DNA of 64,000 bases from Mesoplasma melaleucae (GTDB lineage Bacteria; Bacillota_I; Bacilli_A; Mycoplasmatales; Mycoplasmataceae): assembly GCF_002804105.1 (NCBI RefSeq), contig NZ_CP024964.1, positions 744,001 to 808,000 of the forward strand. Direction: 5' to 3'. A program made the position numbers and the translations under genes. Below are positions 1 to 59,857 of the stretch, piece after piece; position 1 is the first letter of the stretch; each line of letters starts with the position of its first letter. The notes beneath the pieces are model-generated. The model made no database searches. It was given only the letters and a program-made list of their open reading frames with translations, and was not told the origin of the DNA.

Positions 1-1419
1 CCAGCAGGAGCATTAGTGGGTCAAATTAAGCCAGTTAATAAAGACGGACGCTTTCCTAAACTTTATGCAAAAGAAGGAACACAAGTATTTCCTAAATTAA
101 CATTCCCATTTCAAACGCAACCTGTTTTAAGTTTAATCGACTATTGAAATAGTGACCAAATTATACCTTTAAATGATATTCTGAACTTTATTAAATCAAA
201 GGGTAAAAAATATAATGATTCATTTTCTTTAGCTGATTTCTTAAAATTAGGTAAACCTTCAGAGAAACCAGTTTTAAGAGTAGACTCTGGAGAAAAGATT
301 AGATTCTATTCGAAAGGTATAAGAGAAGACGGTAGTTACTCAATGAATGGTGTATGAATACCCAAAAATGAACCATATGAAGAATGAATAGAATTTACTA
401 AAGGAAGTAAAATTGGATATAAAGTAGCTTCAGGAAATCCTGGTGCAGCTAGATTACTAAATAAAATAATTGATGACATCTATCAAGTTGAAGTTACTCC
501 AAAAGAATACACAAACTATAGTGCAGCTTTTGAAGTATTGTTAAGTATGTTAACTGAATCTTTCTGAAAAGATAATGAATTTGAAGGTGCTATAAAAACT
601 GTAGATAAAGATGGGCAAATAATTGAAGAAATTGATGATAAAACTATTTATGTAAGATCGCAAAAATATGCTGGACAAGACAGATATAGTGTAACAACTA
701 ATTTGTGGTTGGCATGAAAGAAAGTTAATCAAGATTTAGTAATTAATAATCAATCAATAATTAAAAGAATAGAATCAGTCATGGCAATGTTATCAGGACA
801 ATTAAAATGTAATTATTCAATCAACAAAGGAGATAATGATGATTATAAAATATTACTGCCATATTATTTTGAGTTACAAAACCCTATAGAAAATCCAAAT
901 AGAAACTGAGTTGAATATAAGGACATTATAGTAAAATTAAAATCTTCATATTTTGATATAACTGCATCTGAAATTAAACCAAAATTGACTCCTATTTCAG
1001 AAAATATCGTACATAAATTAGAATACAATCATTATGCTTTCCCTGAGTTAACAAAAACAATTGAGTCTGCATCAATACCATCGTCTATGCCACTTGATCA
1101 ACAATTGGCAAATGGCGAATATTCTAAATATCAGTTAAAGTCATTTAGCAATAATAAAGATGATATTGAAAAAATTAAAAACCAATATGGATCAGGAGAG
1201 ATTACATTTAACCCATTAACAAACATTTATATTATTAATAAAGGCAATTTTGAATTTAAGGAAGTAGAAGCGATTAAAGAATTAATAATTTCTAGCTTTT
1301 ACGGATCAGGCAAATGAAAAATAACGCTTATGACCGAAGCAAATATAGAAATTACTTTAAATCTAAACTTGTTTAATAAATTTGATACAAACAACAGTTT
1401 TGTTAATTTAATATTATAA
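1..1419 (+). CDS. C-terminal part of a large unknown protein
   Basis: The frame is open from the first base to TAA at 1417-1419, giving 472 residues of a longer protein whose start lies outside the window. It reads through several TGA(Trp) codons. No domain is recognised: the chain is hydrophilic, rich in Lys, Asn, Ser and Tyr, with alternating short beta-like stretches and no membrane segment. A small lipoprotein gene follows 21 bp downstream on the same strand, and the terminase-bearing mobile unit lies beyond that, so a phage or mobile-element structural protein is one possibility. A secreted or surface protein is another. The function is unknown. Confidence 0.75.
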
Positions 1420-1440: not shown

Positions 1441-1788
1441 ATGAAAAAAATATTATTAAGTTTAACATCACTATCAATAATTGGGCTAACAACTTCACAT
1501 GTTATTAGTTGCAATCAAGAAGGGAAATATATGATTCAAATTAGAAATTTAGACAGAAAAACAGGACAACCTATTCCAAACGGCATAGTTTTATGAGAAG
1601 GCGATAAAAGAACCATTAAAAGGTATGCAGTCGATAAAAGTCCAGATGGCGATGCACAGGTTAAAATGGAAGTTGAAGGACAAGAAGCAGCTGTTAGAAT
1701 ATCAGCTCAAGGAAATAAAGAACAGTATACTAAATACTTAACTGATCTTATAGGGTTTCCACCTGAACCATGATGAGGTACTAGCTAG
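1441..1788 (+). CDS. small predicted lipoprotein
   Basis: 115 residues starting at ATG 1441 with an AGAGG ribosome site about 5 bases upstream. The N-terminus is a classic Mollicute lipoprotein signal: MKK, a hydrophobic stretch, then the lipobox VISC with Cys21 as the predicted lipidation site. The mature part is polar and may form a small beta domain (GQPIPNGIVLWEGDKR region). The stop codon TAG lies inside the terminator stem. It should sit on the outer face of the membrane. The role is unknown. Confidence 0.8.
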
Positions 1789-1806: not shown

Positions 1807-2066
1807 ATGCAATGTGGGCGGGTGGCGTAAAAGCGTGAAGTATTTTTATTTTTACCGTCAACAAAAAGATTTCACTTGACTCCTGTTTAGTTTTGTAAGA
1901 GAATAAAGTTATAATACATAAATTATATGAAATGTGATTTATGTATAAGTTTCTTTATTGTAGAGTTCTCTTTATAACTAGAACACCCCGCAAGCAAAAT
2001 TTTTTATTTCCGTCATGAATAAAAACTTATGAACGCTTGAGCCACCCAAAATTTTAAGGAGTAAAA
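1807..2066. promoter_or_regulatory. gene-free control region at the left edge of the mobile unit
   Basis: No ORF is supported in these 260 bases. They hold a TATAAT box at 1910-1915, immediately followed by a 10-bp inverted repeat (ATACATAAAT at 1914-1923 and ATTTATGTAT at 1937-1946). They also hold a GC-rich patch around 1814-1826, unusual for this DNA, and the sequence ACGCTTGAGCCACCC at 2033-2047. That sequence recurs at the edge of the second copy of the element and, inverted and degenerate, at 1820-1836. An operator-controlled promoter or a short structured RNA would both fit. Confidence 0.45.
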
Positions 2067-2570
2067 ATGAATACATCTGAAATAATAACTTCTGTTTTAA
2101 CTGCGACTTCTATTTTAGTTGCTGTTATTTTTCCTATTATTCTCTATTATACTAATAATTCAAACGAAGCAAGGAAACTTTATATTAAGCATAGTGAAGA
2201 TTTTAGAAATAATTTACGTCAGCTTGGACTTCAATTGAATATGCAATTTTCAAATGAAGAATATGTAAAATATTTTGTTCATTATTTGCTTCAATTTGAA
2301 GAAAATGTTAATACTGTTGAAAGTCATGTTAATAAAAATTTTTATTGAATTTGTTTAATTTGTAAAGAGCAAGATAGTTTTTCTTCAATAAAAGATACAA
2401 AAATTTCAGGAAAACTAACTGACTATAATGAGATGCGCAAAGTATATTGAATATTTTACTGGTGCAGTTTTAATAAAAGAAAAGTTAAATATAAGTTTAA
2501 AATTAAAACGAAATCAAAAATAGATCTTTATTTTTATTTTAAATGTTGTAATTTAGATTCAAATAATTAA
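2067..2570 (+). CDS. small membrane-anchored protein of the mobile unit
   Basis: 167 residues from ATG 2067, with AAGGAG seven bases upstream, to TAA at 2568-2570. Residues about 7-27 form one hydrophobic helix followed by a hydrophilic, Lys- and Asn-rich tail with two TGA(Trp) codons. The protein is probably anchored in the membrane with a cytoplasmic tail. The corresponding slot in the other copy of the element carries an unrelated zinc-ribbon gene, so this is exchangeable cargo. No family is recognised. Confidence 0.65.
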
Positions 2571-2658
2571 AGAAATGTATTTAAAAGAAGGTTAAATTCC
2601 TTTTTTATTGTAATTTTTAAAAAAGTTGCTAGGTATTACCTTATCTTGGAGGTAGTAC

Positions 2659-4380
2659 ATGAAACAAAATAAAATTAAATGAGAGGATCTAAAACCAACA
2701 GAAAATAATTTTAACTTTACCTTTGACGTTTTAGATGCGGTTTGAAATGATTTACTTAAAGAACCATTCAGTGCAAAAAGTTTATTTTATGCAATGTCAG
2801 GTGCTAAAGGATTTGGTAAGACCTTTTTAATCTGTTTGCTTGCTTTATATCTAGTTTGTAACTTTAAAGATTATAATGCTCAATTAGCTAAATACACTTA
2901 TGCATCAGCTAAAGAAAGTTACTACAAAACAATGAAGAAGGTAATGAATTTACTTAAAGAAGAATATGGAGTTACTGTTATTGATTTTATTGGACAAAAT
3001 AAAGTCGCACTAATTAAAGAATTTAACTCAGAATCAAAATGCGCATGAGTCTTTGAAAATGGCAGAGAAATTAATGTTATAGGATTTGATAATACTAGTA
3101 AATGAGAAGGTGTTCCAGCAGCTACTGGGGAAATAGGAATGTTTGCTATTGATGAAGTTATTCCTTTAGGTGAAGAAATAATCGATGAAGCAGACTATGT
3201 TTACAAGCTTGTAAATCTTATGACTCAAGTAGTGCGTGGTCAAAACTTAACTACATGCTTAGAACCTTTACCTGAATTAAAAGGAATAAAACCTTTACCA
3301 TTTAATAAAAATGAAACATGACAAATGTATAAAAAGCACTATATTCTTTTTGGATTTAATAATCATGATACAAGTCACCCAATTTATCAAATGTTTATGG
3401 ACGAAATAGCACCTTTAACAGACGAAGTAAAAGAAGAACTAGATAAAAATGCAGTTAGTTACAGAGAAGACACTACATTCTTAAACATGGGTGCCACTGT
3501 TATACGTGGAACTACAGCAATTAACAAAGCAAATTTAAATCCTAAAGTTTTGGAACTAGGGGAAGGTATTAAAGAACGTTGACCAGAAACTTACAACACT
3601 TTATTTAAAGGTGATGAAAATCAGATGCAAATAGATAAATATGCATATAGAAAAGATTTGCTTGAAAATGCTCAATTCTTTAACAAGGAAGATTTTTATT
3701 GAGATGAAACAAAGAGATTCTGATTTGACCAAATTAGAATTGGTTCAGATTATGCTGATGGTGGTGAAAGCGGAGATGACGCAGTAACAATGTTAATTGG
3801 ATTTGAACTTGATGCTATAACAGGTGTTGTTAAGGGAGTTTATATTTTAGATGAACTTTCTATATCAACAAAGAAATTTAAAAACATGGAAGATAAAGTT
3901 GAATCTATAGCTAATTTTATTAATGATAAAACTAGAAGCTATGAATTTGGATCAGCTAGAGCAAAATTTGAAGATCATATAAGATTTAAAATTGGAGCTG
4001 ATTCTAGAACTGTTAAAGATTTCTTAATTGGTATTCTTGAAAGAAATCATCAAATAAACAGAGAAATGCTAGAAAGAAATTTTACTTGCTTTATTTCATC
4101 AGGTTCTAAAGGATGAAAGATAGAAACAAGACACTATATGTGAAAGAGACTATTAAATGAAAAGAAATTATTCTTTGCAAACGAGTTAAAAGTAATAAAA
4201 AAAATACAAGGTGTTGACGTTGTAGTTAAAAAACATGGTTACTTGTATGATGAATTATTTAGATGTACACTTCACCCTGATAAAAAAATTAGAGATGAGC
4301 GACCAAAACGAAATAAGTTAGATGCTATAAATGCAGCAGAACATGCAATTAGTTACTTTAGATATAATCTTTTTGAGTAA
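2659..4380 (+). CDS. phage terminase large subunit (left copy)
   Basis: 573 residues from ATG 2659, preceded by a strong GGAGG site. Terminase large subunits are the packaging ATPase-nuclease motors of tailed phages. The N-terminal ATPase domain shows Walker A GAKGFGKT (48-55) and Walker B MFAIDE (161-166). The C-terminal nuclease domain shows GSDYADGG (Asp364 the likely metal ligand) and the late acidic motif DAINAAEHA (555-563). The length is normal for the family. Six or more TGA codons are read as Trp. No portal, capsid or small terminase gene is recognisable beside it; its partner here is a transposase. A near-identical copy lies at 45349-47070. Confidence 0.88.
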
Positions 4381-4433: not shown

Positions 4434-5837
4434 ATGAAAGTAATAAATCAAATCGAAGTTTTTGATGAGTTAAAAGACTTACATTTAAATTTATTAATTG
4501 AAGATATGCTTGAGAAAATCCAAGAATTAGATTTAGAAATTAAAAATAGTGATTGGCGTAAAGCAGAAGGCTATTATGTTAATGGTTACTCAAAAAGAAC
4601 TATTATATTTAGCGAAGGTGTTATGACTTTGAAAAGAACAAAATATAAAATATGAAATTCAATTGAAAAAAAATGAAATACTAAATGTTTAGTGGATGAT
4701 TATATTCAATTAGAAAAATATCAAAGAATCAGTTATGAATACATTGATAAAATTCTTAATCAAGTTTCAGACGGAATTAAATACAAAGATATAATAAATT
4801 GTTATCCTAGAGCGAGAATTGATAAATCAACAATATCAAGAATTATTAAGAAAATGGATATTGAAAATTTAAGTGAAATTTCATCTGATTTAGATTATGA
4901 AATACCAAGTGATGCAGATAAATATGATTATGTTTATGTTTCTACAGATGACGCTTTTTTAAAACTAAAGGAATTTGATAAAGAAGAAGCAAAAATGAAA
5001 GCAAAAAAACATAGAGTTAGATTAGCTGTTCTTTATTTAGGAGTTTCAGATAAAAAAGATGATCGCAATTCTAAGTTAGTTCATAAAAGAATTATTTACC
5101 AAATTGATAAACAAAAAACTAGATTACCTTCATCAGCAAAGTTTGCAGAACTTGTTAGAGAAAAAATTAAAGAATTCTATGGTGACAAGGAAAGACAAAT
5201 TATAGTTTGTGGTGATGGGGATGACTACATAAAAAAAGTTGCAGATGAATTAAACGCTAAAATAGTTTTAGACTTTTTTCACTTAAAAGCAAAAATAAGA
5301 AGAGGTCTTCCTTTTACCAAATGAAATAATCCTGCTGGACTAAATCAATTATGTAACCTAATAATGGAAGATATAAAAACGGATCCATTTGCAGCAATAG
5401 ATAAATTAAAAATTTTAATCCATAGTGCAACCGATAATAAAAAAGTTTTATTAAAAGAAGCAATTAGATATATTAAAAATAATTTAGATGGTATATTTGC
5501 TTATCAAGAAGACTGATACAATGGATGTTACACTGAGTCTAACGTTTATCATTTTATTAAATCAATAAGTAATGGAAAATCTTATGCAGTAAAAACATTT
5601 AAGAACTTGATCGCTTTAAGGGCAGGCAAAATAAATTGTTTAAATGCTTTTGAAATATGAAAACATGAAAAAAACATAAAAATTGAACTAAATGCATTTG
5701 AAAATAAACATCATCAATGAAGAATGTTAAGAAACAAAGATTTTAGAAATGCTTCACGAAATGGTCATATAGCGTCTATAGATAGCAAATTTTCTAGATA
5801 CATTGATATTTTTAAACAATATAAAATGTACAAATAA
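4434..5837 (+). CDS. ISLre2/UPF0236-like transposase (left copy)
   Basis: 467 residues from ATG 4434, with an AGGAGG site, to TAA at 5835. The arrangement fits the UPF0236/ISLre2 DDE transposases, which mycoplasma ICE annotations call transposase-like. A charged N-terminal part with a helix-turn-helix-like stretch (about 110-140) is followed by VYVSTDD (Asp172), IIVCGDGDDY (Asp261) and CYTESNVYHF (Glu368), which I read as the D-D-E set. The chain ends in a basic tail. The gene is complete and could be active. The copy at 43892-45295 differs next to the second Asp. Confidence 0.85.
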
Positions 5838-5982: not shown

Positions 5983-6009
5983 AAATCTTAGGCTTTGCAC
6001 CAAATAAAC

Positions 6010-6331
6010 AACTTGCTCAACATTTATAGTGGTTATAATCATCTCATATATTTACTTGAACTTTATTTTTTTCAAAATCAAAACTTATGTTTTCTAAATG
6101 TTGCTGAGCTTCAATTTTTAACAGGAAAATACATTTAAATAATTCTTGATTAATGTCTTCATGCTTGTTAATGAAGCTTCTTTATTGTTTTTCACTAAAA
6201 ATAATTTTTTCTAAGTTTAAATTAGATGTTGTTTTCTTATTAAAAAAGTTTGCACTTTTAATTGCAAAGTACATAGTTGCACAACTTGAAATAATTAGAA
6301 TTAAAACTAATATTGATTTAAAGTATTTCAT
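6010..6331 (-). pseudogene. small membrane or lipoprotein gene, broken
   Basis: From ATG 6331 the frame gives an N-terminal hydrophobic segment (ILVLILIISSCATMYF, possible lipobox) and stops at TAA 6182-6184 after 49 residues. The same frame then continues open for about 55 codons (KHEDINQELFKC..., ending ..NIWDDYNHYKCWA) into the end of the mobile unit. It looks like one gene with a nonsense codon that was truncated by the element insertion. The family is not recognised. Confidence 0.5.
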
Positions 6332-43589: not shown

Positions 43590-43891
43590 TGAATTAACAT
43601 ATTTAAATAAAGCAGTAAAAAATTTAAGGATTCGTTAAATATGTAATTAGTTTGTTTTCTTAAAATAATTATAACATATTTAATTTATTTTTTCTTTTAT
43701 GATTTTCTAAAGAGCAAGTTGTTTATTTGGTGGAAAGCCTAAGATTTACAATTTCCAGTAGAAATTTACTGGAAAAATTGCATGTGAACATCTTTTATTA
43801 CATTTATTTTATCATTTTTAGCAAAAAAGCAACAAAAAAATATAGAAATCCTTAAATTTCCTTTTTTACCATTTATGTCTATTTTTTAGTT

Positions 43892-45295
43892 TTATTTGTA
43901 CATTTTATATTGTTTAAAAATATCAATGTATCTAGAAAATTTGCTATTTATAGACGCTATATGACCATTTCTTGCAGCATTTCTAAAATCTTTGTTTCTT
44001 AGCATTCTTCATTGATGATGTTTATTTTCAAAGGCATTTAGTTCAATTTTTATGTTTTTTTCATGTTTTCATATTTCAAATGCATTTAAACAATTTATTC
44101 TACCTGCCCTTAACGCGATCAAGTTCTTAAATGTTTTTACTGCATAAGATTTTCCATTACTTATTGATTTAATAAAATGATAAACGTTAGACTCAGTGTA
44201 ACATCCATTGTATCAGTCTTCTTGATAAGCAAATATACCATCTAAATTATTTTTAATATATCGAATAGCTTCTTTTAATAAAACTTTTTTATTATCGTTT
44301 GCGCTGTGGGTTAAAATTTTTAATTTATCTATAGCTACAAATGGATAGGTTTTTATATCTTCCATTATTAGGTTACATAATTGATTTAGTCCAGCTGGAT
44401 TATTTCATTTAGTAAAAGGAAGACCTCTTCTTATTTTTGCTTTTAAGTGAAAAAAGTCTAAAACTATTTTAGCGTTTAATTCATCTGCAACTTTTTTTAT
44501 GTAGTCATGCTTATCACCACAAACTATAATCTGTCTTTCCTTGTCATCATAGAATTCTTTAATTTTTTCTTTAACAAGTTCTGCAAACTTTGCTGATGAA
44601 GGTAATCTAGTTTTTTGTTTATCAATTTGGTAAATAATTCTTTTATGAACTAACTTAGAATTGCGATCATTTTTTTTATCTGAAACTCCTAAATAAAGAA
44701 CAGCTAATCTAACTCTATGTTTTTTTGCTTTCATTTTTGCTTCTTCTTTATCAAATTCCTTTAGTTTTAAGAATGCATCATCTGTAGAAACATAAACATA
44801 ATCATATTTATCTGCATCACTTGATATTTCATAATCTAAATCAGATGAAATTTCACTTAAATTTTCAATATCCATTTTCTTAATAATTCTTGATATTGTT
44901 GATTTATCAATTCTCGCTTTAGGATAACAATTTATTATATCTTTGTATTTAATTCCGTCTGAAACTTGGTTAAGAATTTTATCAATGTATTCATAACTGA
45001 TTCTTTGATATTTTTCTAATTGAATATAATCATCCACTAAATGTTTAGTGTTTCATTTTTTTTCAATTGAATTTCATATTTTATATTTTGTTCTTTTCAA
45101 AGTCATAACACCTTCGCTAAATATAATAGTTCTTTTTGAGTAACCATTAACATAATAGCCTTCTGCTTTACGCCAATCACTATTTTTAATTTCTAAATCT
45201 AATTCTTGGATTTTCTCAAGCATATTTTCAATTAATAAATTTAAATGTAAGTCTTTTAACTCATCAAAAACTTCGATTTGATTTATTACTTTCAT
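43892..45295 (-). CDS. ISLre2/UPF0236-like transposase (right copy)
   Basis: 467 residues, same start, length and stop as the left copy. The first Asp motif VYVSTDD and the CYTESNVYHF Glu motif are unchanged. Around the second Asp the sequence reads CGDKHDY instead of CGDGDDY, because GGG-GAT became AAG-CAT at 44507-44512. Gly after that Asp is part of the usual GDG motif, so this copy may be weakened. Other differences are conservative or scattered. Confidence 0.84.
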
Positions 45296-45348: not shown

Positions 45349-47070
45349 TTACACAAAAAGATTATATCTAAAGTAACTTATTGCATGTTCAGCTGCATTT
45401 ATAGCATCTAACTTATTTCGTTTTGGTCGTTCATCTCTTATCTTTTTATCTGGGTGAAGTGTACATCTAAATAATTCATCATACAAGTAACCATGTTTTT
45501 TAACTAGAACATCAACACCTTGTATTTTTTTTATTACTTTTAACTCGTTTGCAAAGAATAATTTCTTTTCATTTAATAGTCTCTTTCACATATAGTGTCT
45601 TGATTCTATCTTTCATCCTTTAGAACCTGATGAAATAAAGCAAGTGAAATTTCTTTCTAGCATTTCTCTGTTCATTTGATGATTTCTTTCAAGAATACCA
45701 ATTAAGAAATCTTTAACAGTTCTAGAATCAGCTCCAATTTTAAATCTTATATGATCTTCAAATTTTGCTCTAGCTGATCCAAATTCATAGCTTCTAGTTT
45801 TATCATTAATAAAATTAGCTATAGATTCAACTTTATCTTCCATGTTTTTAAATTTCTTTGTTGATATAGAAAGTTCATTTAAAATATAAACTCCCTTAAC
45901 AATACCTGTTATAGCATCAAGTTCAAATCCAATTAACATTGTTACTGCGTCATCTCCACTTTCACCACCATCAGCATAATCTGAACCAATTCTAATTTGG
46001 TCAAATCAAAATTTCTTTGTTTCATCTCAATAAAAATCTTCCTTGTTAAAGAATTGAGCATTTTCAAGCAAATCTTTTCTATATGCATATTTATCAATTT
46101 GCATCTGATTTTCATCCCCTTTAAATAAAGTGTTATACGTTTCTGGTCAACGTTCTTTAATACCTTCACCTAGTTCTAAAACTTTAGGATTTAAATTTGC
46201 TTTGTTAATTGCTGTAGTTCCACGTATAACAGTGGCACCCATGTTTAAGAATGTAGGGTCTTCTCTATAACTAACTGCATTTTTATCTAGTTCTTCTTTT
46301 ACTTCGTCTGTTAAAGGTGCTATTTCGTCCATAAACATTTGATAAATCGGGTGACTAGTATCATGATTATTAAATCCAAAAAGAATATAGTGCTTTTTAT
46401 ACATTTGTCATGTTTTATTTTTATTAAATGGTAAAGGTTTTATTCCTTTTAATTCAGGTAAAGGTTCTAAGCATGTAGTTAAGTTTTGACCACGCACCAC
46501 TTGAGTCATAAGATTTACAAGCTTGTAAACATAGTCTGCTTCATCGATTATTTCTTCATTTAAAGGAATAACTTCATCAATAGCAAACATTCCTATTTCC
46601 CCAGTAGCTGCTGGAACACCTTCTCATTTACTAGTATTATCAAAACCTATAACATTTATTTCTCTGCCATTTTCAAAGACTCATGCGCATTTTGATTCTG
46701 AGTTAAATTCTTTAATTAGTGCAACTTTATTTTGTCCAATAAAATCAATAACAGTAACTTCATATTCTTCTTTAAGTAAATTCATTACTTTTTTCATTGT
46801 CTTATAATAGCTTTCTTTTGCTGATGCATAAATATATTTTGCTAACTGGGCATTATAATCTTTAAAATTACAAACTAGATATAAAGCAAGCAAGCAAATT
46901 AAAAAAGTCTTACCAAATCCTTTAGCACCTGACATTGCATAAAATAAACTTTTTGCACTGAATGGCTCTTTTAGTAAATCATTTCAAACTGCATCCAAAA
47001 CATCAAATGTAAAGTTAAAATTATTTTCAGTTGGCTTTAGGTCTTTTCAATTAGTTATTTTATGTTCCAT
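45349..47070 (-). CDS. phage terminase large subunit (right copy)
   Basis: 573 residues with Walker A GAKGFGKT, Walker B MFAIDE, nuclease GSDYADGG and DAINAAEHA all intact. The N-terminal dozen residues differ from the left copy (MEHKITNWKDLK against MKQNKIKWEDLK) and the last residue is Val instead of Glu. The left copy's strong GGAGG ribosome site is absent here; only weak purine-rich sequence precedes ATG 47070, so translation may be poorer. Confidence 0.86.
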
Positions 47071-47127: not shown

Positions 47128-47146
47128 AAGAAGAATTAACCTTCTT
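47128..47146 (-). terminator. terminator after the zinc-ribbon gene
   Basis: Stem AAGAAG / CTTCTT with a seven-base loop containing the gene's stop codon, then TTTTTTATT on the minus strand. The left copy has a decayed version near 2586-2610. Confidence 0.72.
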
Positions 47147-47313
47147 TGTTTTGATTTTGTTGCATTTTTATCTTTTTATGTCCATAAAGATTTGTACACA
47201 TTCAAGTAGAATCATTATCTACATTGCAATGTTTGCAATCTTTAAAAGATTTTGTTACTCCTACTTTTTTGCAAATACCACATTTAATATCTATAAAAAA
47301 AATGACCAGCCAT
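47136..47313 (-). pseudogene. zinc-ribbon protein with a one-base poly-T frameshift
   Basis: ATG 47313 (GAGAGG upstream) starts MAGHFF, then TAG or TAA follows because the T run has eight bases. With seven, it continues into a 58-residue protein with two Cys pairs, KCGICKK and DCKHCN, plus a third Cys in STWMCTN, ending KKIKMQQNQNKEG. That is a small zinc ribbon. Slippage at the run could still allow some full-length product. Confidence 0.65.
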
Positions 47314-47487
47314 TAATAAACCTCTCATAATTAACTCTTTCTATCTTTTTTTAAGAAATTAGAATAAACCATTTCTGTAACTTCTAGTTCACTTTCTTTC
47401 AAACTAAGGTAAAAGAAACCTATTATTATATAATAAATTAAAAAATTTGGGTGGCTCAAGCATTCATAAGGAGTAAGTTGAATTGTC

Positions 47488-47522
47488 GGTGCAAAGGCTA
47501 AGATTTACAATTTCCAGTTAAA
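47488..47522 (-). repeat. solo 3' end of an older mobile unit
   Basis: Reads GGTGCAAAGGCTAAGATTTA then CAATTTCCAGTT on the plus strand. It matches the 3' end of the unit (compare 43737-43770) in the same orientation as the right copy. Head-to-tail with that copy, 18 bases apart. Confidence 0.75.
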
Positions 47523-47537
47523 ATTTATTTTAATATT

Positions 47538-47690
47538 TAAAATACCTTCATTTTTCTGTAAACATATTTAAGAATTTCAATTAATTCTTTTGCTGCTTTA
47601 GCTTCTTCTTATTTTTTAATTCCTTTACAAGCACTTCTACTATTATTTCTTTAATAGATAAATCATCATATTTATCTTTAACTTATAAAA
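47538..47690 (-). pseudogene. small helical protein remnant
   Basis: Minus-strand fragments KVKDKYDDLSIKEIIVEVLV and, after a frameshift, EEAKAAKELIEILKYVYRKM, ending at TAA 47538. It has no start codon and is probably part of the older, decayed copy of the mobile unit. The family is unknown. Confidence 0.5.
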
Positions 47691-47943
47691 GTTGATTAAA
47701 TTGTTAACAGATTTTTAAAAAAGTTTCTTTTCGAAGAAAAAGAAATTTATAGTTATCTCATTGAATACTAACTAAAACCTTAGTGAGTACTTATTAAATA
47801 CTAATTAAAATTTTAAAAGTTAAATTTGCAGACAAATATTAAGTTTCATATTAAAACAAGCAACAAAAAAATAATTAGTTAAAACTAATGCTTATTTTTA
47901 TGTGTTTAATGATTAATTATTTATTCTCTACTACGTTTTCAAA

Positions 47944-48818
47944 TTATCATTCAATATCTATATTTTCTTCCATTATAAATTCATTTTTAACTTCTTTTGG
48001 AGGAGATTCCTTATCTTTTCCTTGTTTGTCTAGAAATGTTTTAGTAACAAGCTGGTATAATTCTAAATTTACTTTAGATACTTTAAGTTCTATTTCATTA
48101 AATTCTTTTTGCATTTTAATAATCTTTCTTATTTGTTGAGCAGCTTTGTCTTTAATTGTTTTAAGTCCATTTTTAATTGCTGATATTAATTTCCTTGTAA
48201 AGTGAGGACAAATATTCATTAATTCTACTAAATGATTAAATCCTATTGCTTTACATGCTAATTGCTTATATTGTACTTTTTCTCATATATATGAATATGA
48301 TCATTGAGTAAAATCTTTTTTTGGTATTCAAATATAAAAGTAGTCCTTTTCATTATTTTTGTCAGTAACAAACTTTTTAGGCACGTTAAAACTTCTTAGA
48401 ATATCGCTATCTTCTGAAGTCACAATAATTTTAAGGGTATCTTTAGTTGATCGTTCTTTGTCAACAGGTCTTCTAGCTATTGGCACATTTCAACCTTTAA
48501 TAGCTGGTTTTTTAAATTGTACTTTTGCTATATTTTTCCCTACTTTTTATGTTATAAAATAAGCAGGTTTACCATTTTTTATCATACATGATTCATTCTA
48601 CAATTTCTACATTTAAAATATTTTTTCATCTTGAGTTTTAACTACTTCAAAAAATATGTTGTTATATCCATAACATTTACAAATATTTTTTTCACTCTAA
48701 TTTCAATTTCATCTCTTGAAGATATTGAAAGTGGTATTAATTTAATTCTTTGTTTTTGTTGTAAGAATATAACCGATTTTTTCATCACCACGAGTTACCT
48801 TTTTTTGTAATACACCAT
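47944..48818 (-). pseudogene. unknown mobile-region protein, 5' half broken
   Basis: From 48546 to the stop at 47944 the frame is open for about 200 codons (FKKPAIKGWNVPIARRPVD, DYFYIWIPKKDFTQWSYSYI, NICPHFTRKLISAIKNGLK, then an acidic coiled tail). It has no start codon. Upstream to ATG 48818 the pieces YYKKKVTRGDEKIGYIL, IKLIPLSISSRDEIEI and NGKPAYFIT lie in shifting frames with stops. It is one gene in decay. It is not a family I recognise; the neighbourhood suggests mobile-element origin. Confidence 0.6.
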
Positions 48819-59533: not shown

Positions 59534-59612
59534 TTAATTTTCCTCTTTCTTTAAACTTCTATAAAATTATACAACTTTATAACTTTTAAAAAAATAATTT
59601 TAATTTATCTGG

Positions 59613-59857
59613 GTAAATTGTTTATTTGGTGCAAAGTGCAAGATTTACAATTTCCAGTAGTAATTTACTGAAAAAATTGTATGTGAACGTCTTTTGTTAC
59701 ATTTATTTTATCATTTTTAATAAAAAAGCAACACAAAATAAAGAAATCGTTAAATTTTCATTTTTTGTACACAAGGTACTTTTATTTGTACATTTTATGT
59801 TGTTTTATCATGTCAATATATTTAGCAAACTTAGAATCAGCAAAAGCAATGACCACA
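59613..59857 (-). mobile_element. scar of the mobile unit: 3' end and transposase tail
   Basis: Matches the end of the unit: TTTATTTGGTGCAAAG, the stem-loop, the spacer with AAAAAAGCAACA, then the last codons of the transposase (KYIDMIKQHKMYK, stop) and part of the preceding GHxA region. Everything upstream in the element is gone. The orientation is that of the right copy. Confidence 0.82.

What the first reader, a model, noticed from the sequence alone, without database searches (positions are those of the whole stretch)
2067..2570. Cargo swap in front of the terminase
The left unit has a 167-residue membrane protein where the right unit has a zinc-ribbon protein (47136-47313), while the flanking edge (GCTTGAGCCACCC) and the terminase are conserved. 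This suggests a modular slot for changing accessory genes, as seen in mobile elements that carry small defence or counter-defence genes.
Basis: partly seen in the sequence, partly recalled or inferred. Interest (0 to 1): 0.62.

Follow-up and report, generated by a model that had tools for sequence, protein, structure and literature searches.

The report
Swappable gene slot in mollicute prophages

Summary
The swap is real, but its setting was misread. The left 'unit' is the last third of a 16.0-kb transposable prophage that starts outside the window (G000:733,981 to window 6018). It has imperfect inverted ends and an 8-bp target duplication (AACATTTA), and the site is empty in five congeners. 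The right 'unit' is an internally deleted relative.

The 'edge' GCTTGAGCCACCC is the 3' arm of a ~230-nt rod-shaped structured element (window ~1820-2047). It has strong covariation, no credible Rfam match, and lies beside the terminase (TerL) gene in all ten of 320 genomes that hold close TerL relatives.

The interval between rod and TerL is a variable slot. It holds a membrane protein in the left prophage and its G009 relative, a frameshifted zinc-ribbon ORF in the right remnant, and nothing in most relatives. More distant relatives carry a type II restriction-modification pair, Panacea-antitoxin or TIR-like genes, or an S1 protein. Two copies in one genome with 91-93% identical flanks hold unrelated cargo.

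The defence role of the two window genes is unproven. The rod's function is open and is the more novel lead.

The parts
16..1419 (+). C-terminal part of a large prophage protein (DUF3688-like); the gene starts before the window
   Evidence: 54% identical to the 683-aa G031 protein and related to the S. citri DUF3688 protein, E 3e-17
1441..1788 (+). Prophage lipoprotein gene, followed by a terminator-like hairpin at 1780-1799
   Evidence: ORF; same place in relatives; terminator scan
1820..2047 (+).
   Evidence: fold z -5.5; model hit 1861-2005; covariation
2048..2607 (+). Variable slot of the left prophage, ending in a small hairpin followed by T
   Evidence: boundaries from left/right comparison; hairpin
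2067..2570 (+). Slot cargo P0003: 167-aa protein with N-terminal hydrophobic helix, function unknown
   Evidence: found only in G000 and G009
2659..4380 (+). Terminase large subunit (TerL), 573 aa
   Evidence: PHROG 2, E 5.9e-10; conserved K54, D165-E166, D364, D373, D555
4434..5837 (+). ICE-type DDE transposase (Mbov_0401 family, ISLre2-like)
   Evidence: NF046004, 292 bits, cut-off 162
5993..6018 (-). Right inverted end of the left prophage; target duplication AACATTTA follows at 6019-6026
43712..43737 (+). Right inverted end of the right remnant (the element reads on the minus strand)
43892..45295 (-). Transposase of the right remnant
   Evidence: 96.6% identical to P0004
45349..47070 (-). 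TerL of the right remnant
   Evidence: 96.9% identical to P0001
47136..47313 (-). Slot cargo of the right remnant: zinc-ribbon-like ORF, frameshifted at an 8-T run
   Evidence: no relatives found
47441..47470 (-). Remaining rod 3' arm of the right remnant (30 nt, 93% to the left copy)
47471..47513 (-). Second right-end-like sequence, abutting the rod fragment
47553..48501 (-). Decayed copy of the prophage early region
   Evidence: 71-79% to L083 early genes

Best explanation
It is an accessory-gene ('moron') slot in a family of transposable prophages of Mollicutes. The slot lies between a conserved rod-shaped structured element and the terminase large-subunit gene. Rod and TerL stay constant and act as homologous borders; the gene between them is lost or replaced. 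Homologous recombination between co-resident copies or infecting relatives is the likely route (inferred). In the left prophage the cargo is a small, probably membrane-anchored protein, perhaps acting at the lysogen's membrane, for example in superinfection exclusion (weak inference). In the right remnant it was a zinc-ribbon protein, now frameshifted. The whole prophage moves as one element: inverted ends, 8-bp duplication and empty sites are shown; that its own ICE-type DDE transposase does this is inferred.
For: Both edges of the slot are homologous between the two copies while the interiors are not. Relatives hold different cargo or none in the same interval, including a type II restriction enzyme and methyltransferase (E 2.6e-39 and 8.7e-122), SocA/Panacea antitoxins above the Pfam cut-off and a TIR-like protein just below it, and an S1 protein. 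Two copies in genome G023 share 91% over 3.2 kb on the TerL side and 93% over 337 nt on the rod side with unrelated cargo between. Where the slot is empty the rod starts 259-459 nt before TerL; in G009 and G000 it starts 820-839 nt before it. Mobility: inverted ends, AACATTTA duplication and contiguous empty sites in five congeners.
Against: Only two cargo types are seen in the window's own genus, and one of them is a pseudogene in a remnant, so exchange there rests on one pair of copies. In Spiroplasma, f9, G004 and G005 the rod lies downstream of TerL rather than upstream, so equating the intervals rests on the shared TerL and a similar rod, not on identical order; the Spiroplasma rod scores only E 0.3 with the model. 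Other parts of these prophages also gain and lose genes. No expression or phenotype data.
Confidence: 0.78

Rival explanations
1. Simple deletion and decay: the ancestor carried both genes (or neither) and the difference is neutral decay of an old remnant, with no functional slot.
For: The right copy is clearly degraded: internal deletion, frameshifted zinc-ribbon ORF, truncated rod.
Against: No relative carries both genes; the same interval holds unrelated intact genes in other lineages and in sister copies of one genome.
Confidence: 0.12
2. The left and right copies are stand-alone mobile units (insertion sequences with a terminase passenger), and the edge is the unit's end.
For: Spiroplasma genomes hold many copies of a compact transposase-TerL core with constant limits.
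Against: In G000 and G009 the inverted ends and target duplications bracket the whole 15-16-kb prophage, and the site is empty in five congeners. The edge lies inside, 4 kb from the right end.
Confidence: 0.05
3. On the rod: it is a packaging RNA or a hairpin packaging site recognised by TerL, taking the place of a small terminase subunit; the slot is merely the gap between two functionally linked parts.
For: Rod and close TerL relatives (E<1e-40) occur in exactly the same 10 of 320 genomes, 4 of them not used for the model; they stay adjacent even where side or strand changes; covariation; phage MaM-2019a, which has a small terminase, lacks a rod beside TerL.
Against: TerL elements of family f11 have no detectable rod; no expression or binding data; absence of a small terminase was not tested rigorously.
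Confidence: 0.3
4. On the rod: it is a regulatory leader that carries the promoter of the downstream gene (TTGACT-17-NAGAAT) inside a folded region, controlling cargo and terminase expression.
For: TTGACT and GAAT keep a 17-nt spacing in most aligned rods; promoter-like match at 1876-1904 and a terminator just upstream at 1780-1799.
Against: Promoter-like matches in the region are not above shuffled background (9 against 6.5). In Spiroplasma, f9, G004 and G005 the rod lies downstream of TerL and cannot lead it.
Confidence: 0.3

Closest known systems
Spiroplasma phage MaM-2019a (OL689226-OL689230; DNA from phage-like particles of S. poulsonii, Ramirez et al. 2023 as cited in PMC12453411)
   Same: Mollicute phage of 19 kb with a transposase gene at one end; one structural protein 26% and the transposase 25% identical
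   Different: Different TerL with a small terminase subunit, no rod beside TerL, no match to P0001
Mycoplasma ICEs (MICE) and their p-MULT 5 DDE transposase CDS22 (PMC7466169)
   Same: Transposase of the Mbov_0401 ICE family at the 3' end, inverted ends
   Different: Phage genes (TerL, weak head-protein match) in a 16-kb element; no conjugation genes recognised
phiMAV1 and phiMFV1 prophages (PMC7466169)
   Same: About 16 kb, compact, nearly unidirectional; variable genes for surface proteins (vir, mem)
   Different: The review confines them to the Hominis group; the phage collection gave no TerL match
Accessory-gene (moron) and defence hotspots of other prophages and genomic islands (own knowledge; modular hotspots for example in PMC12629846)
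   Same: Fixed borders, exchangeable cargo including restriction-modification and toxin-antitoxin-like genes
   Different: Here the borders are TerL and a structured element, in Mollicutes
phi29 packaging RNA (own knowledge, not tested)
   Same: A structured element linked to the packaging ATPase of a small phage with no small terminase recognised
   Different: No Rfam match here; this TerL keeps nuclease residues; function untested

Membership tests
Transposable prophage (broad sense) | Transposase gene within the element | tested here: met
   NF046004, 292 bits
Transposable prophage (broad sense) | Inverted ends and short target duplication around the whole prophage | tested here: met
   G000 and G009; empty sites
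Transposable prophage (broad sense) | Phage structural and packaging genes | tested here: met
   TerL E 5.9e-10; weak head-protein match E 8e-4
Transposable prophage (broad sense) | Replication by transposition, as in Mu | not testable with these tools
   needs experiments
Accessory-gene (moron) slot | Constant borders with unrelated genes between them in different copies | tested here: met
Accessory-gene (moron) slot | Cargo with its own promoter and terminator | tested here: inconclusive
   small hairpin before a T run after the cargo; promoter-like match not above background
Accessory-gene (moron) slot | Cargo that changes the lysogen's phenotype | not testable with these tools
   inferred from families only
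IS element carrying a terminase | Ends and target duplication directly around transposase plus TerL | tested here: not met
   in G000 and G009 they bracket the whole prophage
Integrative conjugative element (MICE) | Conjugation genes | tested here: not met
   none recognised among the prophage proteins scanned
Known RNA family (Rfam) | Match at the gathering score | tested here: not met
Packaging RNA (phi29-like in function) | Transcribed RNA that binds the packaging ATPase | not testable with these tools
   strand bias of folding favours RNA (9 of 11 and 11 of 12) but mismatch counts are neutral

The most novel reading that the evidence does not exclude
The rod is a packaging RNA (or hairpin packaging site) that partners TerL in place of a small terminase subunit in a transposable phage family of Mollicutes, and the interval between the two is a defence-gene hotspot because it lies between two parts that must be inherited together.
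Probability: 0.25. Interest if true: 0.85.

Novelty: new variant of a known kind. Interest (0 to 1): 0.6.

Why it matters
Phages of Mollicutes are poorly known and these are barely annotated (TerL is 'hypothetical protein' in an S. citri record). A fixed, recognisable slot gives a systematic way to find new defence and counter-defence genes in wall-less bacteria: look between TerL and the rod. The rod itself, tied to one TerL family and without a credible Rfam match, makes a packaging-RNA hypothesis directly testable outside the phi29 group.

Tried and rejected
Stand-alone IS with a terminase passenger: rejected for G000 and G009 by ends and empty sites. Known RNA family: no credible Rfam match; isolated hits (sR35, mir-4657) judged chance. 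Phage and plasmid collections: TerL relatives found only in S. citri plasmids. Pattern scans of genome and viral contigs for TerL and P0003 found no relatives. AlphaFold models of P0003 and TerL were too poor to use (mean pLDDT 44 and 32), so no fold search was run. A profile search of PDB sequences with the TerL alignment gave no match. Promoter scan alone: not above chance (9 against 6.5 +/- 2.6). In the output the two G019 rods are labelled 'anti, down'; that label of mine is wrong: TerL there is on the minus strand and the rod lies upstream in sense. Some partners of the Panacea genes looked PemK-like by eye, but no Pfam model supports it.

Full report
Observation. The window lies at 744,001-808,000 of an 845-kb mollicute genome read with code 4. 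Left (+): ORF 2067-2570 (167 aa, P0003), terminase large subunit 2659-4380 (P0001), transposase 4434-5837 (P0004). Right (-): transposase 43892-45295, TerL 45349-47070, zinc-ribbon ORF 47136-47313. TerL and transposase are 96-97% identical between the copies. At the slot, 30 nt on the rod-side edge (93%, E 3.5e-9) and 56 nt on the TerL-side edge (86%, E 4.6e-14) align; the interiors do not. The zinc-ribbon frame is out of register with its apparent ATG across an 8-T run, so it is probably a pseudogene.

What the 'units' are. Relatives at 45-86% TerL identity show a phage gene order that continues upstream of the left copy: large structural proteins, a DUF3688-like protein, a lipoprotein, TerL, transposase. 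In G000 the element runs from 733,981 to 750,018 (16.0 kb). Its imperfect inverted ends are GGGCAAGTTGAATAGTTAGTGCAAAA on the left and GAGCAAGTTGTTTATTTGGTGCAAAG on the right (reverse complement); the target duplication is AACATTTA. A joined-flank query is contiguous in five congeners and broken only in G000, with an 8-bp overlap. The G009 prophage (15.4 kb) has the same kind of ends and its own duplication of 8-9 bp. One 346-aa protein weakly matches major head proteins (E 8e-4). TerL matches PHROG 2 (E 5.9e-10) and keeps candidate ATPase and nuclease residues over 12 divergent members. The transposase belongs to the Mbov_0401 ICE family (292 bits, cut-off 162); mycoplasma ICEs carry a DDE transposase at their 3' end (PMC7466169). 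The right copy is a remnant with internal deletion: a decayed early region (47553-48501), a second right-end-like sequence, a rod fragment, the slot, TerL, the transposase and the right end.

What the 'edge' is. GCTTGAGCCACCC closes a long imperfect hairpin at ~1820-2047. Elements with the same architecture lie before TerL in G009, G031, G042, G027, G040, G022, G021 and G019, and beside TerL on its other side in G004. The four folded singly have z -5.0 to -5.7. In eight prophages the rod is the best-folding 240-nt window within 1.8 kb of TerL. It starts 259-459 nt before TerL where the slot is empty, and 820-839 nt before it in G009 and G000, the extra length being the P0003 slot. Covariation: 45 cells changed on both sides against 15.4 +/- 3.0 in shuffles (0/500), score 0.348 against at most 0.172 when slid. 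Caveat: the set includes close pairs, and the structure was derived from these sequences. A covariance model of six core sequences finds 11 hits in 10 of 320 genomes of the order, the same ten that hold TerL at E<1e-40; four of these were not used for the model. Spiroplasma-type elements, family f9 and G005 have a comparable 210-230-nt rod on the downstream side of TerL; whether it is homologous to the first type is not proven (best model score E 0.3). Family f11 TerL elements show none. There is no credible Rfam match.

The slot. Contents between TerL and rod: P0003 in G000 and G009 only (83% identity); zinc ribbon in the G000 remnant only; no recognisable gene in G031, G042, G027 and G040, in G022 and G021/L039, and in several Spiroplasma-type copies. 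An S1-domain protein in the multicopy G021 elements (Pfam E 6e-15). In G023/L076 a type II restriction enzyme (E 2.6e-39) and methyltransferase (E 8.7e-122); in G023/L075 a SocA/Panacea antitoxin above the Pfam cut-off, with unassigned partners. In G309 Panacea plus a TIR-like protein (24.5 bits, cut-off 24.7); in G305 Panacea plus an unassigned partner; in G014 an unassigned 152-aa ORF. The two G023 copies share 91% over 3.2 kb on the TerL side and 93% over 337 nt on the rod side, with unrelated cargo between. This is the clearest exchange. Panacea antitoxins neutralise many different toxins, and related systems are linked to phage defence (PMC8832971 and PMC10440598, abstracts).

How it probably works. 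Shown: conserved borders, exchanged interior, mobility of the whole prophage. Inferred: exchange by homologous recombination across rod and TerL; cargo that benefits the lysogen or the phage. P0003 has a hydrophobic N-terminal helix followed by a soluble part and no relatives found in a scan of 84,980 genomes. A membrane role such as superinfection exclusion is a guess by analogy with phiMAV1 vir and phiMFV1 mem (PMC7466169). The rod may be an RNA or DNA packaging partner of TerL (linkage, adjacency on either side, absence beside TerL in the TerS-bearing phage MaM-2019a), a regulatory RNA, or a promoter-bearing leader (TTGACT-17-NAGAAT in most copies). Strand bias of folding (9 of 11 and 11 of 12) favours RNA, but mismatch counts are neutral.

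Known or new. Cargo hotspots in prophages, transposable phages and ICE-type transposases are each known kinds. New here, as far as these searches reach, are the combination in Mollicutes, a slot defined by TerL and a structured element, and the element itself. The claim is limited by one genome per species, by poor annotation of the structural genes, and by the absence of expression data.

Noticed in passing
L036 10788-11936; L037 7804-8931; L040 10540-11669; L127 1643-2755: The transposase beside TerL is itself swapped between lineages: Mbov_0401 type in G000, G009, G031 and Spiroplasma-type copies, an IS3-like ORF in G027, G040 and G042, IS481 family in G309; MaM-2019a clones carry IS285-like or IS30-like ones.
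   Followed up: partly
L108 8331-8855 (+) and 8884-11088 (-): In S. citri the lipoprotein and the divergent DUF3688 gene share a 109-aa segment at 88% identity in inverted orientation, which could allow inversion or conversion of a variable surface domain.
   Followed up: no
window 59607-59832: A third remnant: the transposase 3' end and right end of a related element.
   Followed up: partly
window 2595-2653 and L083 12127-12186: A 60-nt block just before TerL is repeated (92%) in the early region of the same prophage.
   Followed up: no
L075 6477-6570: A 94-nt stretch at the far end of the G023 cargo resembles the TerL 3' end of the sister copy (77%), perhaps a trace of how cargo was inserted.
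   Followed up: no
L025 3042-3164 (G019): One rod has become a nearly perfect inverted repeat, as if one arm had been copied onto the other.
   Followed up: no
L131 4861-5090 (family f7): A strong rod-like fold also lies near a distant TerL relative in G166, but behind another gene.
   Followed up: no
L063 (G021:C1:1598500-1610000): Two TerL-rod-lipoprotein copies lie in tandem 5,169 bases apart, the first with a truncated transposase.
   Followed up: no
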